A stretch of DNA of 43,614 nucleotides from Paludibacteraceae bacterium (lineage in GTDB: Bacteria > Bacteroidota > Bacteroidia > Bacteroidales > Paludibacteraceae). The translations under genes and the position numbers were made by a program. Below the pieces are notes generated by a model that saw only the letters and a list, made by a program, of their open reading frames with translations, had not been told where the DNA came from and made no database searches. Below are positions 8,402-37,233 of this stretch, piece after piece. Numbering within the stretch: position 1 is the stretch's first letter; every line of letters starts with the position of its first letter. The DNA is taken from positions 1-43,614 of the forward strand of contig JAGBVI010000050.1 of assembly GCA_017630395.1 (NCBI GenBank), given 5' to 3'.

Positions 8402-11362
8402 TCAACGTTTAAGGAATTGAGCTCTCTTAACGCCAGAATCAGTAATAAGCTCCACGATATATATACCGGCAGCAAGCTGAGAAAGATTCAAAGAAATTTT
8501 ATCCTCTTCGACATCTGCCTCTACTTCAAACACTGCACCGGAAGAAGCATAAACTTTAACGTTCAACAAAGACTCTTCACTAGATAAATCTATGAACAAA
8601 TTATCGTCCACCGGATTAGGGTATAAAGAGAGAGTACTGCCCTTCACAGTTTCTACAGAAACAAGATCACAAGGGGCATCTTCATCAATCACTGCAAATA
8701 CCGGTGTTCTTGCACAAGAAGAACCGGCAGAAATCTTCCAATCAAAAAGAGCAGGGAAGCCATAATCATTTGCAGTGCCGGAATTAAATTTAATGATGTC
8801 CGAGTAAGCAAACTCATCATAATTACAATTTGTTGAATAGTTGAACTCTGCATTACCTGGTTTAAATTCAATAACGTATGTACCTGCTTTTGTGATATTT
8901 ATAGGATTTTGCTCAAAAGAGAAAGTATAACTTCCCGCATTTTGAACATTTTCTGCAGCCGAAACAAACACGCCTTCTGCATCACCTGAAAGAGTTGCTG
9001 TTAAAGTTTGTTCACTCTTATGATATACACTACTATAACTTACAGAAATCTGAGTAATTTGCACTTCTCCTGAAGTTGTAAAATAGACTTTTTTATCCCC
9101 ATAAGTTCTGTTATTAGCCAATTGCTTTTCAGATGGTCCGGCTGTTGCAGAAATAGAACCTGCATCTTGCACATAAAATACCTTTGACTCTGAAATTTCA
9201 GTTGAGAACGAAGAACCTTTTCCTAAAGCAGTTCCTCCCTCAGGAGCATCATACCACTCATAATCACCATCAGCCAACACCGAAAGATTAACATATCCCG
9301 GTTTACAAATAACATCACCCTCAACCTCAGGTAACAAAGATGTAACATTCACCTCAACCGTTTTACTTTCGCAACCGGTTGCAGAGATAGTCAAACCATA
9401 AGTACCTGCAGAATAGGCAATATATACAGTATCATTTGCATCTTCAATTTTAGTTCCATCCTTGCTCCAAGAATAGGACAATCCCTCACCTGCCACAGAA
9501 GCAGCCAAACGAGCAGAAGTTTGCTTACAAAGTTCCACATCCTCTCCAATAGTAAAATCAGGAAGAACGTCTGTAACTGTCACCTCAGCACTAGTTGACC
9601 ATGCCCCGGAAGTTTCAACCACTTCGCATTTATACGTACCTGCTTCAGAAACAGAGATACTCTCCTTTCCATCGAAAGAAGATAAAGGAGAATCATTTTT
9701 ATACCACTTGTAAGTAACTTTTTCACCCTCGTCCAAATTAGAAAGGTCAACAACTGCGTTGATAGTTACAGTTCCAACTCCACAAAGAGTTCTATTTGCA
9801 CCAAGTTCTGGAGTAGGATGTCCAAATTTATTTGTATTAACAGGACTAAGAATAGAATTGATATAACCCAAAGCACCAACTAATCCTGCATTATAATCAA
9901 TACCTCCCTCAGAATAGGTATAATCTGCACCTGGAACATCACTATAGGAACCATCCAGATTACCACCAACCAGATAACCAAATTGTCTGAACTTATCCTT
10001 AACAGTTACGCCAGCCTCTTTATCAGTATCTTCGCGATAATAATTCCTGTGATGAACATACTTTGGAGATTTTTCTCCAAATCCGGTAATATAAGATAAA
10101 TTACCGGAGTTCTTACCCATTATGTATTCGATTGTAGTAAGTGAATATTGATTTACAGAAGACATGTCGCCCTTCAATTTGCTATATAATCCGTAAACAA
10201 AAGCTTGATTGGCAGGGAAACGAAGTTTACCCCAACCACCAACCTTCTTATTCAAGAAATATCCGGAAGCGGGTTTATACATCGAATTAACATAAAAATC
10301 CATTACATTGAGAGCTTTCTCTGAGTAAGAAGATTCTTTTGTAGATGCAATCAAATAAGCTGCTAAATCCTCCGTATTATTATAACACAACGTATAATTA
10401 TAATTATAATCTGCTTCTGCATTCATCCAAGAACAATTTGCTTCTGCATCTGCCAAATATTTTTTATCTCCTGTTGTTCTATAAAGCTCAACGCTAAATG
10501 TTACCATATCAGCAACATACTTTGGTTTAGACCCATAAAATCCTCCGGCTGCCGAGTTCCCTTTTGGCGTTCCATTAACAAATTCGTATGCTACCAAAGC
10601 CTTTTCCAAACACTTTTTAGCATAATCTCCATCAAAAGGGGCATAAAGCCTTGCCATCGCAGCTAAGGCCGAACCACAAAGGGCTGCCATAGAGGTAACG
10701 TTACCTGTTGCCTTAGAAACTTTTCTGGACCCATCGGCTTCACCACCCTCAGATACTGGCAAAGTTGCCATCACAGATGCTGTAACCCAATGTTTATGAT
10801 CCGCATCCCCATCTCCTACTTGATAATAGAAAGTAGATTTATCTCTTACGCATTTCATCAAATAGTCTGTGGCATATTTTACCTCATCCAAAATATCCGG
10901 AATTCCATTGGGTTTACCCTTTTTTCCTTCCCACGTATAATCATCAGCCGAAATATATCCGCTATAATCAAATGAATAATAATCATCATACCCTTCCGGA
11001 AACTCAGAATAACCCAACAGCAGCATATAAGCTGAATAAAACTCTGTTTGACCAAATTTCACATGGTCTCCACAATCAAACCATCCACCGGACAAATCGT
11101 AATCTCCATCTGCATCTTTCACAAATGATTGACCTTGCACAAACTTACTTTTATCCCATGAAACATTAACACTCGTTGGATTATGTGTCGCCAATAACCA
11201 ATTAGGGCCGACTCCCGATCGCTGAGCGCCATAAAAACGAGTGGTCATCCACAATGCCTTCTGATATTGTTCTAAATCAAACGAAGGATTTTGTGCCCAC
11301 CCAAAAAATATTGGTAAAAAACTGATTACCAATAAAATACATGATTTACTAATTTTATTCAT
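8402..11362 (-). CDS. Glycoside hydrolase family 9 cellulase with Ig-like domains and T9SS sorting domain
   Basis: A 986-residue secreted enzyme. A signal peptide (residues 1-23, ending GWAQ) leads into a GH9 catalytic domain at about 26-505. The domain carries the signature DLSGGWFDCGDHVKFG (D96, D99), the substrate-binding HHR (437-439) and the catalytic acid E485 in YSEGGIDYNAGLVGAL. Ig/PKD-like modules follow (about 515-690), then a beta-rich region. The C-terminus (about 910-986, NPVDDNLFIDL ... GIYIVELITDSGVKRAQFLKR) is a type A sorting domain of type IX secretion. The protein is thus expected to cleave internal beta-1,4-glucan bonds at the cell surface or outside. It has its own terminator and no polysaccharide-utilisation genes beside it. 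Confidence 0.92.
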   Translation of the reverse strand: MNKISKSCILLVISFLPIFFGWAQNPSFDLEQYQKALWMTTRFYGAQRSGVGPNWLLATHNPTSVNVSWDKSKFVQGQSFVKDADGDYDLSGGWFDCGDHVKFGQTEFYSAYMLLLGYSEFPEGYDDYYSFDYSGYISADDYTWEGKKGKPNGIPDILDEVKYATDYLMKCVRDKSTFYYQVGDGDADHKHWVTASVMATLPVSEGGEADGSRKVSKATGNVTSMAALCGSALAAMARLYAPFDGDYAKKCLEKALVAYEFVNGTPKGNSAAGGFYGSKPKYVADMVTFSVELYRTTGDKKYLADAEANCSWMNAEADYNYNYTLCYNNTEDLAAYLIASTKESSYSEKALNVMDFYVNSMYKPASGYFLNKKVGGWGKLRFPANQAFVYGLYSKLKGDMSSVNQYSLTTIEYIMGKNSGNLSYITGFGEKSPKYVHHRNYYREDTDKEAGVTVKDKFRQFGYLVGGNLDGSYSDVPGADYTYSEGGIDYNAGLVGALGYINSILSPVNTNKFGHPTPELGANRTLCGVGTVTINAVVDLSNLDEGEKVTYKWYKNDSPLSSFDGKESISVSEAGTYKCEVVETSGAWSTSAEVTVTDVLPDFTIGEDVELCKQTSARLAASVAGEGLSYSWSKDGTKIEDANDTVYIAYSAGTYGLTISATGCESKTVEVNVTSLLPEVEGDVICKPGYVNLSVLADGDYEWYDAPEGGTALGKGSSFSTEISESKVFYVQDAGSISATAGPSEKQLANNRTYGDKKVYFTTSGEVQITQISVSYSSVYHKSEQTLTATLSGDAEGVFVSAAENVQNAGSYTFSFEQNPINITKAGTYVIEFKPGNAEFNYSTNCNYDEFAYSDIIKFNSGTANDYGFPALFDWKISAGSSCARTPVFAVIDEDAPCDLVSVETVKGSTLSLYPNPVDDNLFIDLSSEESLLNVKVYASSGAVFEVEADVEEDKISLNLSQLAAGIYIVELITDSGVKRAQFLKR

Positions 11363-32321: not shown

Positions 32322-33308
32322 ATGGAAGAAATTATAAGTCCTATTTCAGTAGAGCTTTTAGAAAGTGAACTAACTTCTGAAAAGTTTCTTAGAAAAACCA
32401 ACAAGGGGAACAATGAAATATATGTGGTTACTGCTCACAATGCCCCTAATGTTATGCAAGAGATTGCTCGCCTCAGAGAAATCTCATTCCGTTCTGCCGG
32501 TGGGGGTACGGGACTAAGTTTGGATATAGATGAATATGACACCTGCGAAAATCCGTACCAACAATTAATCGTTTGGAATCCGGAAGCTAGAGAAATAATC
32601 GGGGGGTATCGTTATATATTAGGTAAAGATGTATCTTTTGATGAACAGGGTACACCTAAATTAACCTCTTCTCATCTTTTTGCTTACTCTGAAAAATTTA
32701 TAAAAGAATATCTTCCATATACTCTTGAATTAGGTCGCTCGTTTGTACGCCCGGAATATCAATCCTCCAAAATGGGTGCCAAAAGCCTTTTTGCATTGGA
32801 TAATCTTTGGGACGGAATCGGTGCTTTAACAGTTACACTTCCTAACGTAAAGTACTTTTTCGGGAAAGCAACCATCTATCCATCTTTTGACGAAGATGCT
32901 CGGAATCTAATCTTCACATTCATGCAAAAATATTTTCCGGACAAGGATCATTTGATATACCCTCACCACTTATTGGACACTCGCAAAAAATGGGAGGAAA
33001 TGAACCAAATCCTTTGTGGGAATAGCTACAAGGAAGATTATTGTATCTTAAAGAGTTACATTCGAGAATCCGGTCTAAACATTCCGCCGTTAATCAATGC
33101 TTACATGGCACTTTCTCCAACCATGCGAACATTTGGCTCTTGCATCAATGATGAATTTGGAGATGTTATCGAAACAGGACTGATGATTACCATCGAAGAC
33201 ATCTTTGAAGAGAAACAACAAAGACATATTCAATCTTACGTTGAACAACTTCAACAAGAGAAAGAGGACATTCTCAATAATGCCACATCTATCTTAAACA
33301 TCAGTTGA
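32322..33308 (+). CDS. glsB: OlsB/GlsB-like N-acyltransferase (glycine/ornithine-lipid type)
   Basis: A 328-residue GNAT-fold protein of the ornithine-acyl-ACP N-acyltransferase group. Visible are the substrate segment REISFRSAGGGTGLSLDIDEYD, the core YRYILGKD, and LELGRSFVRPEYQSSKMGAKSL, where ELGRSFV is the family hallmark. In Bacteroides the homologue GlsB links a 3-hydroxy fatty acid to the amino group of glycine. The C-terminal 100 residues extend past the minimal domain. It follows the O-acyltransferase gene by 22 bases, so the pair is an operon. Its end overlaps the convergent ybaK by 15 bases. Confidence 0.78.
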   Translation: MEEIISPISVELLESELTSEKFLRKTNKGNNEIYVVTAHNAPNVMQEIARLREISFRSAGGGTGLSLDIDEYDTCENPYQQLIVWNPEAREIIGGYRYILGKDVSFDEQGTPKLTSSHLFAYSEKFIKEYLPYTLELGRSFVRPEYQSSKMGAKSLFALDNLWDGIGALTVTLPNVKYFFGKATIYPSFDEDARNLIFTFMQKYFPDKDHLIYPHHLLDTRKKWEEMNQILCGNSYKEDYCILKSYIRESGLNIPPLINAYMALSPTMRTFGSCINDEFGDVIETGLMITIEDIFEEKQQRHIQSYVEQLQQEKEDILNNATSILNIS

Positions 33309-35061: not shown

Positions 35062-35092
35062 TTGCAGAAAAAAAAAAGTATCTCTACTTTTG
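35062..35092 (+). promoter_or_regulatory. Promoter of the pheA leader
   Basis: TTG at 35062-35064 and TACTTTTG at 35085-35092 are separated by 20 bases, fitting the Bacteroidetes -33/-7 pattern. Transcription would start near 35099, about 23 bases before the leader peptide ATG. The flanking DNA is extremely A-rich. Confidence 0.65.
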
Positions 35093-35121
35093 CAACGATA
35101 AAACAAAAACGTCAAAAACAA

Positions 35122-35199
35122 ATGAGAAATTTTAATTACACATTCTTTTTCTTCTTTTACTTTTACTTTAAGAGTAGAAGCGGGATTGTGTTGTCGTAA
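35122..35199 (+). CDS. pheL: Phe/Tyr-rich leader peptide of pheA
   Basis: A 25-codon ORF (ATG 35122, TAA 35197-35199). Codons 8-16 (35143-35169) encode FFFFFYFYF, seven phenylalanines and two tyrosines in nine codons; another Phe and Tyr lie just before. It sits between a good promoter and an intrinsic terminator, upstream of the prephenate dehydratase gene, exactly like the leader peptides of Phe-controlled attenuators in enterobacteria. The ribosome would stall on these codons when charged tRNA-Phe is scarce. Confidence 0.85.
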   Translation: MRNFNYTFFFFFYFYFKSRSGIVLS

Positions 35200-35252
35200 T
35201 TAAACTAAAATAAGTAAAACAATAGGTCCCGCAGTAATGTGGGACTTTTTTT
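35180..35252 (+). promoter_or_regulatory. Transcription attenuator: antiterminator and terminator of pheA
   Basis: Terminator: GTCCCGCA (35226-35233), loop GTAA, TGTGGGAC (35238-35245), then seven T (35246-35252), with one G-U pair. Antiterminator: GCGGGA (35180-35185), inside the leader peptide ORF, is complementary to TCCCGC (35227-35232), helped by TTGT/ACAA next to it. A ribosome stalled on the Phe codons leaves GCGGGA free and the terminator cannot form; a ribosome reaching the stop codon covers it and the terminator forms. Mechanism inferred by analogy with enterobacterial pheA. Confidence 0.8.
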
Positions 35253-35264
35253 ATACATAAAAAT

Positions 35265-36107
35265 ATGAAAAGAGTAGCTATACAAGGAATTGCAGGGTCA
35301 TTCCATGACATCGCAACAAGAGAGTACTTCAAAGATGAAGAGATTGAAATTGTTCCATGCGAAACGTTCGCACAGGTTTTCCAAACTATGAAGTGCGATA
35401 CATCTCTGATTAGTTTAATAGCAATCGAAAATACCATTGCAGGAAGTTTACTTCAAAATCATCAGTTGTTAAAAAATAGCGGACTAAAAATAGCAGGAGA
35501 ACATAAACTTAGAATTAAACATAACTTAGTTGCCATTGCGGGGCAAAGTATTGAGGATATTAAAGAGGTCTATTCTCACCCGATAGCATTAATGCAATGT
35601 GGCGAATTTTTAGGACAAAACAAAGGAATAAAAGCAATTGAATATGACGATACCGCATCAAGTGCTAAAATGATTGCAGAGCTCAATGAAAGTGGGAAAG
35701 CTGCCATCTGCGGCGAAGAAGCTGCCAAAATCTACGGATTGGAAATTTTGGCCAAAGGAATTGAGACTAACAAACGTAATTTCACCCGTTTTTTGGTATT
35801 GGCAGACCCATGGATGGTGGACGATTTAAATCAAAAAAGACAACCTAACAAAGCAAGTTTGGCTTTTGTTCTACCGCATGAAGAGGGTAGTTTAGCTCAA
35901 GTACTTTCCATCCTCTCTTACTACAAAATGAACTTGACCAAAATTCAATCCATGCCTATAATTGGTCATGAATGGGAATACGAGTTTTTTGTAGATTTGC
36001 GTTTCGAAGATTATTTGCGCTTCAAACAATCATTAGATGCCATTGGACCACTAACCAAAGGATTGACAATTTTAGGGGAGTATCAAGAGGGCAGACAAAC
36101 TTTATAA
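35265..36107 (+). CDS. pheA: Prephenate dehydratase with ACT domain
   Basis: A 280-residue enzyme converting prephenate to phenylpyruvate, the committed step to phenylalanine. Motifs: IQGIAGSFH (6-14), the substrate-binding IENTIAGS (54-61) and NFTRFLVL (TRF at 174-176). A regulatory ACT domain (about 197-275) contains EEGSLAQVLSILS where Phe-binding family members have PGSL. The ESRP motif of Phe-inhibited enzymes reads IQSMP here, so feedback inhibition may be altered. There is no fused chorismate mutase; that activity lies in the next gene. Expression is controlled by the attenuator immediately upstream. Confidence 0.93.
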   Translation: MKRVAIQGIAGSFHDIATREYFKDEEIEIVPCETFAQVFQTMKCDTSLISLIAIENTIAGSLLQNHQLLKNSGLKIAGEHKLRIKHNLVAIAGQSIEDIKEVYSHPIALMQCGEFLGQNKGIKAIEYDDTASSAKMIAELNESGKAAICGEEAAKIYGLEILAKGIETNKRNFTRFLVLADPWMVDDLNQKRQPNKASLAFVLPHEEGSLAQVLSILSYYKMNLTKIQSMPIIGHEWEYEFFVDLRFEDYLRFKQSLDAIGPLTKGLTILGEYQEGRQTL

Positions 36108-36171: not shown

Positions 36172-37233
36172 ATGGATTTAGAAAAATTACAATTAACTGG
36201 AGTTGAAGAGAAACGTCCATTGGTGATAGCCGGCCCATGTAGTGCTGAGACAGAAGATCAAGTGATGGAAACTGCTAAAGAGTTATCAAAAAATGGTGTA
36301 AAGGTATTTCGTGCCGGAATTTGGAAACCAAGAACCAAACCGGGAGGATTTGAAGGAAATGGAGTTGTGGCATTGCCTTGGATGCAACAAGTAAAAAAAG
36401 AGACAGGAATGTTGACTGCAACAGAGGTTGCTACTGCTAAACATGTTGAAGAGGCTCTTAAATACGACATTGACCTACTATGGATTGGAGCCAGAACCAC
36501 TGCAGACCCATTTGCTGTACAAGAGATCGCAGACACACTAAAAGGAGTGGATATCCCTGTATTGATTAAAAACCCTGTTAACCCCGACTTAGAGTTGTGG
36601 ATTGGAGCTTTGCAACGATTAAATTTTGCCGGTATAAAACGTTTAGGAGCTATCCACAGAGGTTTTAGCTCTTACGACAAAAAATTATACAGAAACCTAC
36701 CACAATGGCATATCCCTATCGAGTTGCACAGACGTATTCCGGAATTGCCTATCATCTGCGACCCAAGTCATATTGCCGGAAGAAGAGACCTTATCGCCAC
36801 TCTTTGTCAACAAGCTATGGACCTACAATTTGACGGTTTGATTATTGAATCTCACTCAGACCCTGATCATGCTTGGAGTGATGCTTCTCAACAAGTTACC
36901 CCTGACGTATTATCATTGATTCTTAATAACTTAGTTATCAGAGAAACAAGTCAAACCACAGAAAACCTATCGGAACTAAGAAAACAAATCGATGAAATAG
37001 ACATAAATCTTACCGAAATTCTTGCTAAGCGAATGAGAATCTCTAAAGAGATTGGTATCTACAAAAAAGAGCATGATATGCCTATCCTTCAAACCAGCAG
37101 ATACGATGAAATCATCCATAAACGAGTTCAAGAGGGTATGGCAATGGAGATGGGAGAAGAGTTCTTAAAATCTATTTTTGAGGCTATTCACTCAGAATCT
37201 GTTCGTCAGCAAATGATGATTATCAACAAATAA
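36172..37233 (+). CDS. aroF: Bifunctional DAHP synthase / chorismate mutase
   Basis: A 353-residue fusion. The N-terminal part (about 1-260) is a type I-beta DAHP synthase with VIAGPCSAE, WKPRTKPGGFEG, the metal/PEP residues around IGARTTADPF, IKNPVNPD, and CDPSHIAGRR. The C-terminal part (about 262-353) is an AroQ chorismate mutase (LSELRKQIDEID, LAKRMRISKEIG, RYDEIIHKR). It thus catalyses both entry to the shikimate pathway and the branch toward Phe/Tyr. The mutase domain usually provides feedback control. It lies 64 bases after pheA with no terminator between, so the Phe attenuator likely governs both. Confidence 0.93.
   Translation: MDLEKLQLTGVEEKRPLVIAGPCSAETEDQVMETAKELSKNGVKVFRAGIWKPRTKPGGFEGNGVVALPWMQQVKKETGMLTATEVATAKHVEEALKYDIDLLWIGARTTADPFAVQEIADTLKGVDIPVLIKNPVNPDLELWIGALQRLNFAGIKRLGAIHRGFSSYDKKLYRNLPQWHIPIELHRRIPELPIICDPSHIAGRRDLIATLCQQAMDLQFDGLIIESHSDPDHAWSDASQQVTPDVLSLILNNLVIRETSQTTENLSELRKQIDEIDINLTEILAKRMRISKEIGIYKKEHDMPILQTSRYDEIIHKRVQEGMAMEMGEEFLKSIFEAIHSESVRQQMMIINK

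What the first reader, a model, noticed from the sequence alone, without database searches (positions are those of the whole stretch)
35062..35264. Complete phenylalanine attenuator in a Bacteroidetes genome
A consensus promoter, a 25-codon leader ORF with seven Phe and two Tyr codons in nine, an antiterminator arm (GCGGGA) inside that ORF, and a terminator with seven T precede prephenate dehydratase. Each piece is visible and in the order needed for ribosome-stalling attenuation. Such control is well known in enterobacteria, but I am not aware of it being characterised in Bacteroidetes, where transcription-translation coupling and start-site recognition differ. The operon also contains DAHP synthase-chorismate mutase.
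Basis: partly seen in the sequence, partly recalled or inferred. Interest (0 to 1): 0.78.

Follow-up and report, generated by a model that had tools for sequence, protein, structure and literature searches.

The report
Phenylalanine attenuator conserved across Bacteroidia
A short piece of RNA in front of a phenylalanine-making gene carries a tiny reading frame full of phenylalanine and tyrosine codons, and most of the related bacteria examined keep the same arrangement, so it very probably lets the cell stop making the enzyme when those amino acids are plentiful.

Summary
The leader ORF (35122-35199) has 7 Phe and 2 Tyr in nine codons, GCGGGA (35180-35185), a terminator (35225-35246) and seven T, before pheA. 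Shuffled DNA gave no such ORF.

An automated test found leader plus terminator in 111 of 113 untruncated loci of the order and 55 of 59 from other orders of the class. Antiterminator (2:3) and terminator (3:4) both show compensatory change. A weaker 1:2 hairpin completes the classical layout.

Split operons argue that codons are read as sensors. Where pheA stands alone (8 genomes), five leaders have 0-1 Tyr within the run; three pheA have no leader. Leaders on the detached tyrA/DAHP synthase half keep Tyr.

The mechanism is of the known enterobacterial kind. A putative attenuator before the B. thetaiotaomicron pheA operon was tabulated in 2005, and a structured pheA 5' element was reported in Flavobacterium in 2021. 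My ten literature searches showed no experimental test, and no Rfam family reached its threshold. Verdict: real and strongly supported; a new member of a known kind. The response to phenylalanine is inferred, not shown.

The parts
35062..35092 (+). Bacteroidetes-type promoter TTG-N20-TACTTTTG; start of transcription expected near 35099 (inferred)
   Evidence: TAnnTTTG lies within 70 nt upstream of the leader start in 123 of 163 loci against 12 expected from shuffles, the full form in 104 of 163
35122..35199 (+). leader ORF MRNFNYTFFFFFYFYFKSRSGIVLS with its stop codon
   Evidence: chance test; relatives
35149..35165 (+). arm 1: Phe/Tyr codons that pair with 35169-35185 (1:2 hairpin, -12.7 kcal/mol; shuffles -8.2)
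35179..35188 (+). arm 2: antiterminator arm AGCGGGATTG; its GCGGGA starts 13 nt after the first base of the last Phe codon (35167)
35225..35233 (+). arm 3: pairs with arm 2 (antiterminator) or arm 4 (terminator)
35238..35252 (+). arm 4 and seven T: intrinsic terminator
35265..36107 (+). pheA, prephenate dehydratase
36172..37233 (+). DAHP synthase-chorismate mutase

Best explanation
A ribosome-mediated transcription attenuator of the pheA - DAHP synthase/chorismate mutase operon that senses charged tRNA-Phe (and, less, tRNA-Tyr). When Phe or Tyr is short, a ribosome stalls on codons 8-16; its front edge would end just before 35180, which frees arm 2 to pair with arm 3 as soon as arm 3 is made, so polymerase passes. 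When they are plentiful the ribosome reaches the stop codon at 35197, covers arm 2, and the 3:4 terminator forms. Without translation, 1:2 ties up arm 2 and 3:4 again forms. Shown: anatomy, conservation, compensatory changes, spacing, Tyr codons following operon content in split operons. Inferred: stalling, the response to Phe, coupling of ribosome and polymerase, the transcription start.
For: Automated leader plus terminator in 172 of 219 loci examined: order 111 of 113 untruncated, other orders of the class 55 of 59, other classes 6 of 43. Arm 2 window against own arm 3: -16.6 kcal/mol, shuffles -8.5, foreign arm 3 -11.0; 162 of 176 elements are matched by at most 2 of 50 shuffles. On a sequence-only alignment of all 90 thinned order-level elements, 2:3 has 50 cells changed on both sides (shuffles 13.2) and 3:4 has 76 (18.3), both 0 of 500. 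Arm 2 starts a median 12 nt (mode 13) after the first base of the last Phe/Tyr codon; a ribosome at the stop codon would overlap it in 170 of 176, and cover at least half of it in 145. Five leaders on solitary pheA have 0, 0, 0, 0 and 1 Tyr up to the end of the run, the detached halves keep 38-62% Tyr, and 74 leaders on linked operons average 45%: p=1e-4, or 5e-4 with one per lineage. A His-rich leader precedes hisG in the same genome.
Against: No RNA or expression data. In the finished RNA the terminator is favoured even downstream of a stalled ribosome (-18.6 against -17.5 kcal/mol; P(3:4) 0.87-0.97), so antitermination must rest on 2:3 forming first. The outer two 2:3 pairs are often unpaired (55 and 21 of 90), and further pair types do not exceed shuffles. 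The 1:2 hairpin is weakly supported: 60 of 176 elements at most 2 of 50 shuffles, and arms exchanged between two sequence types pair almost as well. Over 80 loci the Tyr share does not follow whether tyrA is in the operon (p=0.18). Three of eight solitary pheA genes have no leader. On well-supported tree branches the commonest compensatory change gives only 3 independent pairs (sign test 0.25; 8 changes on the whole tree). Most p values are not corrected for relatedness.
Confidence: 0.93

Rival explanations
1. A metabolite riboswitch or T-box in the 5' leader controls the terminator; the Phe/Tyr ORF is incidental.
For: A terminator with an alternative pairing upstream of a biosynthetic gene is what riboswitches look like.
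Against: No Rfam family reaches its gathering score in the window or in 17 loci searched with a lax threshold, one of them the window's own. Between arm 2 and arm 3 the sequence is poorly conserved, so no aptamer is visible. The Phe/Tyr codon run is kept, and its Tyr content changes when the operon is split.
Confidence: 0.02
2. The short ORF acts on translation only (re-initiation or ribosome delivery to pheA), not on termination.
For: Leader genes close to start codons are common in Bacteroidetes (abstract and passages of PMC4833913).
Against: The stop codon lies 65 nt before the pheA start, with a terminator between; the arm that pairs with the terminator is kept in step with it.
Confidence: 0.03
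3. The ORF encodes a small functional (for example membrane) protein, with an ordinary terminator after it.
For: An aromatic, hydrophobic peptide could insert in membranes; within groups of near relatives the peptides are alike beyond the Phe/Tyr run.
Against: Across the class little besides Phe/Tyr is shared, and the length and the frame over arm 2 differ; the Tyr content follows operon content.
Confidence: 0.02

Closest known systems
Enterobacterial pheL/pheA attenuator (Rfam RF01859 Phe_leader)
   Same: Phe-rich leader ORF, three alternative helices, U-tract terminator, prephenate dehydratase gene downstream (enterobacterial anatomy recalled)
   Different: Scores 34.9 bits against a gathering score of 55 in the window's own locus; many Tyr codons; Bacteroidetes-type promoter
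Bacteroid-trp (Rfam RF01692; Table 1 passage of PMC2864571)
   Same: Same class of bacteria; all five matches that I read hold a short ORF with 2-3 neighbouring Trp codons and a terminator-like hairpin (by eye), so it looks like the Trp counterpart
   Different: No match in the window or in the window's genome; other arms and other amino acid
Putative attenuator before pheA>hisHb>aroAIb-aroQ>tyrA of B. thetaiotaomicron (PMC1173090, Table 7, after Merino's website) and the pheA 5' element of F. psychrophilum (PMC9723704, section 19)
   Same: Very likely the same family, in other Bacteroidia
   Different: The passages that I read give no leader peptide for pheA, no amino-acid specificity and no comparative test
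Salmonella mgtCBR tandem attenuators (PMC3641672, abstract read)
   Same: Two leader ORFs in series before one operon, as in 20 related loci here (not in the window)
   Different: There the two sense different signals (ATP and proline); here both are Phe/Tyr-rich

Membership tests
Ribosome-mediated amino-acid attenuator | Leader ORF rich in codons of the amino acid that the operon makes | tested here: met
Ribosome-mediated amino-acid attenuator | Mutually exclusive antiterminator (2:3) and terminator (3:4), both kept by compensatory change | tested here: met
   (and 52, 53 on 60 of the 90); changes counted on a tree
Ribosome-mediated amino-acid attenuator | 1:2 hairpin that favours termination without translation | tested here: met
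   clearly weaker than the other two helices
Ribosome-mediated amino-acid attenuator | Stalled ribosome leaves arm 2 free, ribosome at the stop codon covers it | tested here: met
   spacing, (overlap 170 of 176, at least half covered 145)
Ribosome-mediated amino-acid attenuator | Folds with the ribosome masked give 2:3 on stalling and 3:4 at the stop codon | tested here: inconclusive
   3:4 at the stop codon as expected; 2:3 on stalling only before arm 4 is made, or in a fold where RNA upstream of the ribosome pairs with the U tract
Ribosome-mediated amino-acid attenuator | Readthrough rises when the amino acid is short | not testable with these tools
   needs expression data
Rfam RF01859 Phe_leader | Score at or above the gathering score of 55 bits | tested here: not met
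   34.9 bits in L002; no match at the gathering threshold in the window
Rfam RF01692 Bacteroid-trp | Match to the model | tested here: not met
   (no match in the window or in G000)
Riboswitch or T-box | Match to a known family | tested here: not met

The most novel reading that the evidence does not exclude
Class Bacteroidia carries an old, apparently inherited family of leader-peptide attenuators (Phe/Tyr here, with His and Trp counterparts) whose codon content is re-tuned by selection when an operon is split: Tyr codons are dropped from solitary pheA and kept on the tyrA/DAHP synthase half. This would mean that a ribosome keeps close step with polymerase at these leaders in a phylum whose translation starts do not rely on Shine-Dalgarno sites, and that leader composition reports which end product an operon serves.
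Probability: 0.7. Interest if true: 0.65.

Novelty: new member of a known kind. Interest (0 to 1): 0.5.

Why it matters
It extends classical attenuation, with comparative evidence, to a whole class of abundant gut and environmental bacteria for which my searches showed only predictions. Because attenuation requires the ribosome to act on RNA that is still being made, the leaders are ready-made tests of transcription-translation coupling in Bacteroidota. The split operons are natural experiments that separate RNA structure from codon identity.

Tried and rejected
Default-on two-arm model: after (extended 2:3 more stable than the terminator in 141 of 176) I thought that untranslated RNA would read through. 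Folding the upstream part showed the 1:2 hairpin; 1:2 plus 3:4 beats 2:3 in 169 of 176. Dropped.

Tyr share follows tyrA in the operon: not supported over 80 loci (57 with tyrA in the operon, 14 elsewhere, 9 without a listed match). Only loss of linkage to DAHP synthase, and one genome without a detectable tyrA, go with loss of Tyr.

BTnc231 (RF04180), a weak match in one relative (31 bits, gathering 80.4), did not appear in the ten loci, so I dropped the idea that this sRNA is the terminated leader.

ARAGORN's tRNA-Phe is not supported by Rfam.

Limits. The order-level loci were chosen by PheA similarity, so they lean to near relatives; the 80 named ones were put in the order by title and similarity, not by a taxonomy call; some genomes occur twice (219 loci; 176 non-identical elements in 163 loci). 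The tree used the 55 loci among those 60. The arm 2 position was found by best pairing and often includes one unpaired base; the shuffle and swap tests used a window fixed by position. L057 and L167 carry leaders but failed the automated terminator test. The five solitary and the linked leaders come from different samples: solitary and L107, linked from the named loci. Solitary genes were picked by eye (7 of 63; 55 linked; G484 undecided). G467's DAHP synthase match is a fragment at a contig end, and its other half was not read. G520's second DAHP synthase copy (L292) showed no leader. The leader of G520's solitary pheA was judged by eye. G006's tyrA lies elsewhere but was binned as 'no match'. 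No chance control was run for the His and Trp leaders.

Full report
OBSERVATION. The window lies in a 3.57-Mb assembly (G000). The promoter is TTG-N20-TACTTTTG at 35062-35092, the Bacteroidetes form (consensus recalled); TAnnTTTG precedes the leader start within 70 nt in 123 of 163 loci, against 12 expected from shuffles. An ORF of 10-95 aa with nine Phe/Tyr codons in a row occurs once in the window and never in 60 shuffles of it.

CONSERVATION. I examined 219 loci with a pheA gene: 30, 80 named ones, 29 and 80 stretches. A script that asks for six or more Phe/Tyr in nine codons plus a terminator hairpin within 130 nt found 192 elements in 172 loci. By group: order 111 of 117 (4 truncated at contig ends, 2 without; one of these, L057, has a leader but no T run); other orders of the class 55 of 59 (of the 4 without, L167 has a leader; in L171, L175 and L178 the gene follows closely on what looks like coding sequence, by eye); other classes of the phylum 6 of 43. 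Seven further stretches taken later from the order sample (L294-L300) show a leader in six; L297, from a 1.2-Mb genome, shows none. So the element is widespread in the class Bacteroidia and patchy beyond it. The other order-level gene without a leader, L097, is a solitary pheA (the same sequence as L283).

STRUCTURE. The 32 nt after the last Phe/Tyr codon pair with the 5' arm of the terminator at -16.6 kcal/mol on average, against -8.5 for dinucleotide shuffles and -11.0 for arms of other elements (176 unique elements). A MAFFT alignment of all 90 thinned order-level elements (A3), made without regard to pairing, was tested for both helices. For 2:3, 87.2% of cells are paired, with 50 cells changed on both sides (shuffles 13.2; slid versions at most 25) and no unpaired cell at the three pairs 17:102, 18:101 and 19:100; the two outer pairs are often open, and the number of further pair types does not exceed the shuffles (225 of 500 reach it). 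For 3:4, 98.5% are paired, with 76 cells changed on both sides (shuffles 18.3; slid at most 10). An earlier count on 60 of these elements gave the same picture. At the three core pairs arm 2 follows arm 3 by Watson-Crick changes (1 G-U cell in 270), whereas the matching terminator pairs hold 44 G-U cells. On a PheA tree of 55 loci the G-C/A-U switch at 19:100 (19:121 in A2) needs at least 8 changes; on well-supported branches only 3 independent pairs remain, all in the same direction.

THE THIRD HELIX. The Phe/Tyr codons also pair with the stretch that begins just before arm 2 and runs into it (window 35149-35165 with 35169-35185, -12.7 kcal/mol). Over 176 elements this hairpin has -9.7 kcal/mol against -6.8 for shuffles of its 3' part (26 beat all 50 shuffles, 60 are matched by at most 2) and -7.7 with foreign 3' parts; arm 2 is at least half paired with arm 1 in 146. 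Exchange between two sequence types of leader changed the energy by under 1 kcal/mol, so this helix is much the weakest of the three. Together with 3:4 it beats 2:3 in 169 of 176, so untranslated RNA should terminate.

GEOMETRY. Arm 2 begins 13 nt after the first base of the last Phe/Tyr codon in 44 of 176 elements, median 12 (the segment often includes one unpaired base): about where the front edge of a ribosome waiting at that codon would lie (ribosome dimensions recalled). A ribosome at the stop codon would overlap arm 2 in 170 of 176 and cover at least half of it in 145. Folding the window's leader gives 1:2 plus 3:4 when free and 3:4 with the ribosome at the stop codon. An early stall gives 2:3, but in a fold where RNA upstream of the ribosome also pairs with the U tract. 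Folding only what lies downstream of the ribosome gives 2:3 (-17.5 with the last Phe codon in the A site) while arm 4 is not yet made, and 3:4 (-18.6) afterwards. So the switch must work during transcription.

NATURAL EXPERIMENTS. In the order sample (139 genomes: 63 with a pheA match; 138 with a DAHP synthase match) seven genomes have pheA away from DAHP synthase (G054, G457, G557, G528, G520, G496, G467), 55 have them together, and one (G484) cannot be decided; G452, the genome of L107, is an eighth. Five of these eight pheA genes have a leader: MTRFFTHFFFFFTQQ (G054), MKHDTFRFFFFFAFFFCNG... (G452), MRRNSFRFFFFFAFFFCNG... (G457), MMITINNSFFFFFFRSDPEKGL (G467) and MYFDFVFGFLFCFPKS (G520), with 0, 0, 0, 0 and 1 Tyr up to the end of the run. 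G452 and G457 have two further Tyr codons at the very end of the ORF, beyond arm 2, where a stalled ribosome could not free it. Three have no leader (G557, G528, G496). The detached halves that I read (aminotransferase, tyrA and/or DAHP synthase; not read for G467) keep mixed leaders, for example MNNTFGYYAFYYYFFYNN (G054) and MIKNISVFAYFYYYFYFSNK (G452), with 38-62% Tyr. Leaders on linked operons, counted in the same way on the named loci, average 45% Tyr (74 elements, 69 loci); the only one without Tyr, L054, lies in a genome with no match to the prephenate dehydrogenase family (a metagenome assembly, so it may be a gap). Solitary against linked: p=1e-4, or 5e-4 with one per lineage, without correction for relatedness. 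In G054 the RNA word CTTTAC that serves arm 1 is kept but read in a frame without Tyr (by eye). Against a simple rule: over 80 loci the Tyr share did not differ between operons with and without tyrA (p=0.18), and the window's own operon, with tyrA elsewhere and no aromatic leader before it, has 3 Tyr among 11 Phe/Tyr codons.

NEIGHBOURING CASES. The same genome has a His-rich leader, MVQFFHHIHHYFQR, followed by a terminator-like hairpin before hisG; 14 of 15 genomes tested have a short ORF with at least four His in nine codons there (no chance control, two of the genomes near-identical). The five Bacteroid-trp (RF01692) matches found in 15 genomes, four of them above the cut-off, all hold a leader with two or three neighbouring Trp codons. 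So this attenuator is probably one of a set.

PRIOR WORK. PMC1173090 (passages, Table 7) lists an attenuator before pheA>hisHb>aroAIb-aroQ>tyrA of B. thetaiotaomicron, taken from Merino's website. PMC9723704 (section 19 and passages) reports clues of leader-peptide attenuation before amino-acid operons and structured 5' elements before pheA and hisG in Flavobacteriaceae, without Rfam hits, and says that translation initiation there relies on signals other than Shine-Dalgarno. PMC7366714 (passages) mentions leader-like ORFs in long 5' UTRs of B. thetaiotaomicron. PMC2864571 (Table 1 passages) lists Bacteroid-trp. A 2010 comparative paper by Lopatovskaya and others was seen only as a reference and may cover Bacteroidetes. 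My ten searches (listings, with passages of some papers) showed no experiment on a Bacteroidetes amino-acid attenuator; most subscription journals are not in that library.

VERDICT. It works like the enterobacterial phe attenuator but fails the Rfam Phe_leader threshold, so I treat it as a separate family of the same kind. The response to phenylalanine is inferred.

Noticed in passing
L006-L010, L014, L015, L017-L020, L035-L038, L048, L159, L160, L180, L219, upstream of pheA; also L291 (before an aminotransferase/DAHP synthase operon) and L298 by eye: Two Phe/Tyr-rich leaders in series, each with a hairpin in the script's test: 20 of 172 loci; L035-L038 repeat genomes of L014, L015, L017 and L019. 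Whether they make a stronger switch or sense different amino acids is open.
   Followed up: partly
L319 (G000:C99), upstream of hisG: His-rich leader MVQFFHHIHHYFQR in the window's own genome, so attenuation is probably used for more than one amino acid.
   Followed up: partly
window 9139-9233, - strand: ARAGORN calls a 95-base tRNA-Phe inside a 986-aa ORF; Rfam finds no tRNA there, so it is probably a false call.
   Followed up: partly
G000:C19:3605-4060 (L227): tyrA lies on another contig with no aromatic leader, and scores far higher against PDH_N (112 bits) than the tyrA of G034, G030, G059, G033, G017 and G026 (31-43 bits), which suggests another type of gene.
   Followed up: no
window 32322-33308, + strand: Glycine N-acyltransferase GlsB (NCBIfam, 500 bits against a cut-off of 300), a glycine-lipid enzyme.
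   Followed up: no
L006:3542-3587: Near-threshold match to Acido-Lenti-1 RNA (35.2 bits, gathering 37), a family listed for Acidobacteria and Lentisphaerae.
   Followed up: no
L042, L043, L045, L050 and others, downstream of arm 2: In Parabacteroides-type leaders the stretch after arm 2 (TTTGTATGTA) also pairs with bases just before arm 3, which lengthens the antiterminator.
   Followed up: partly
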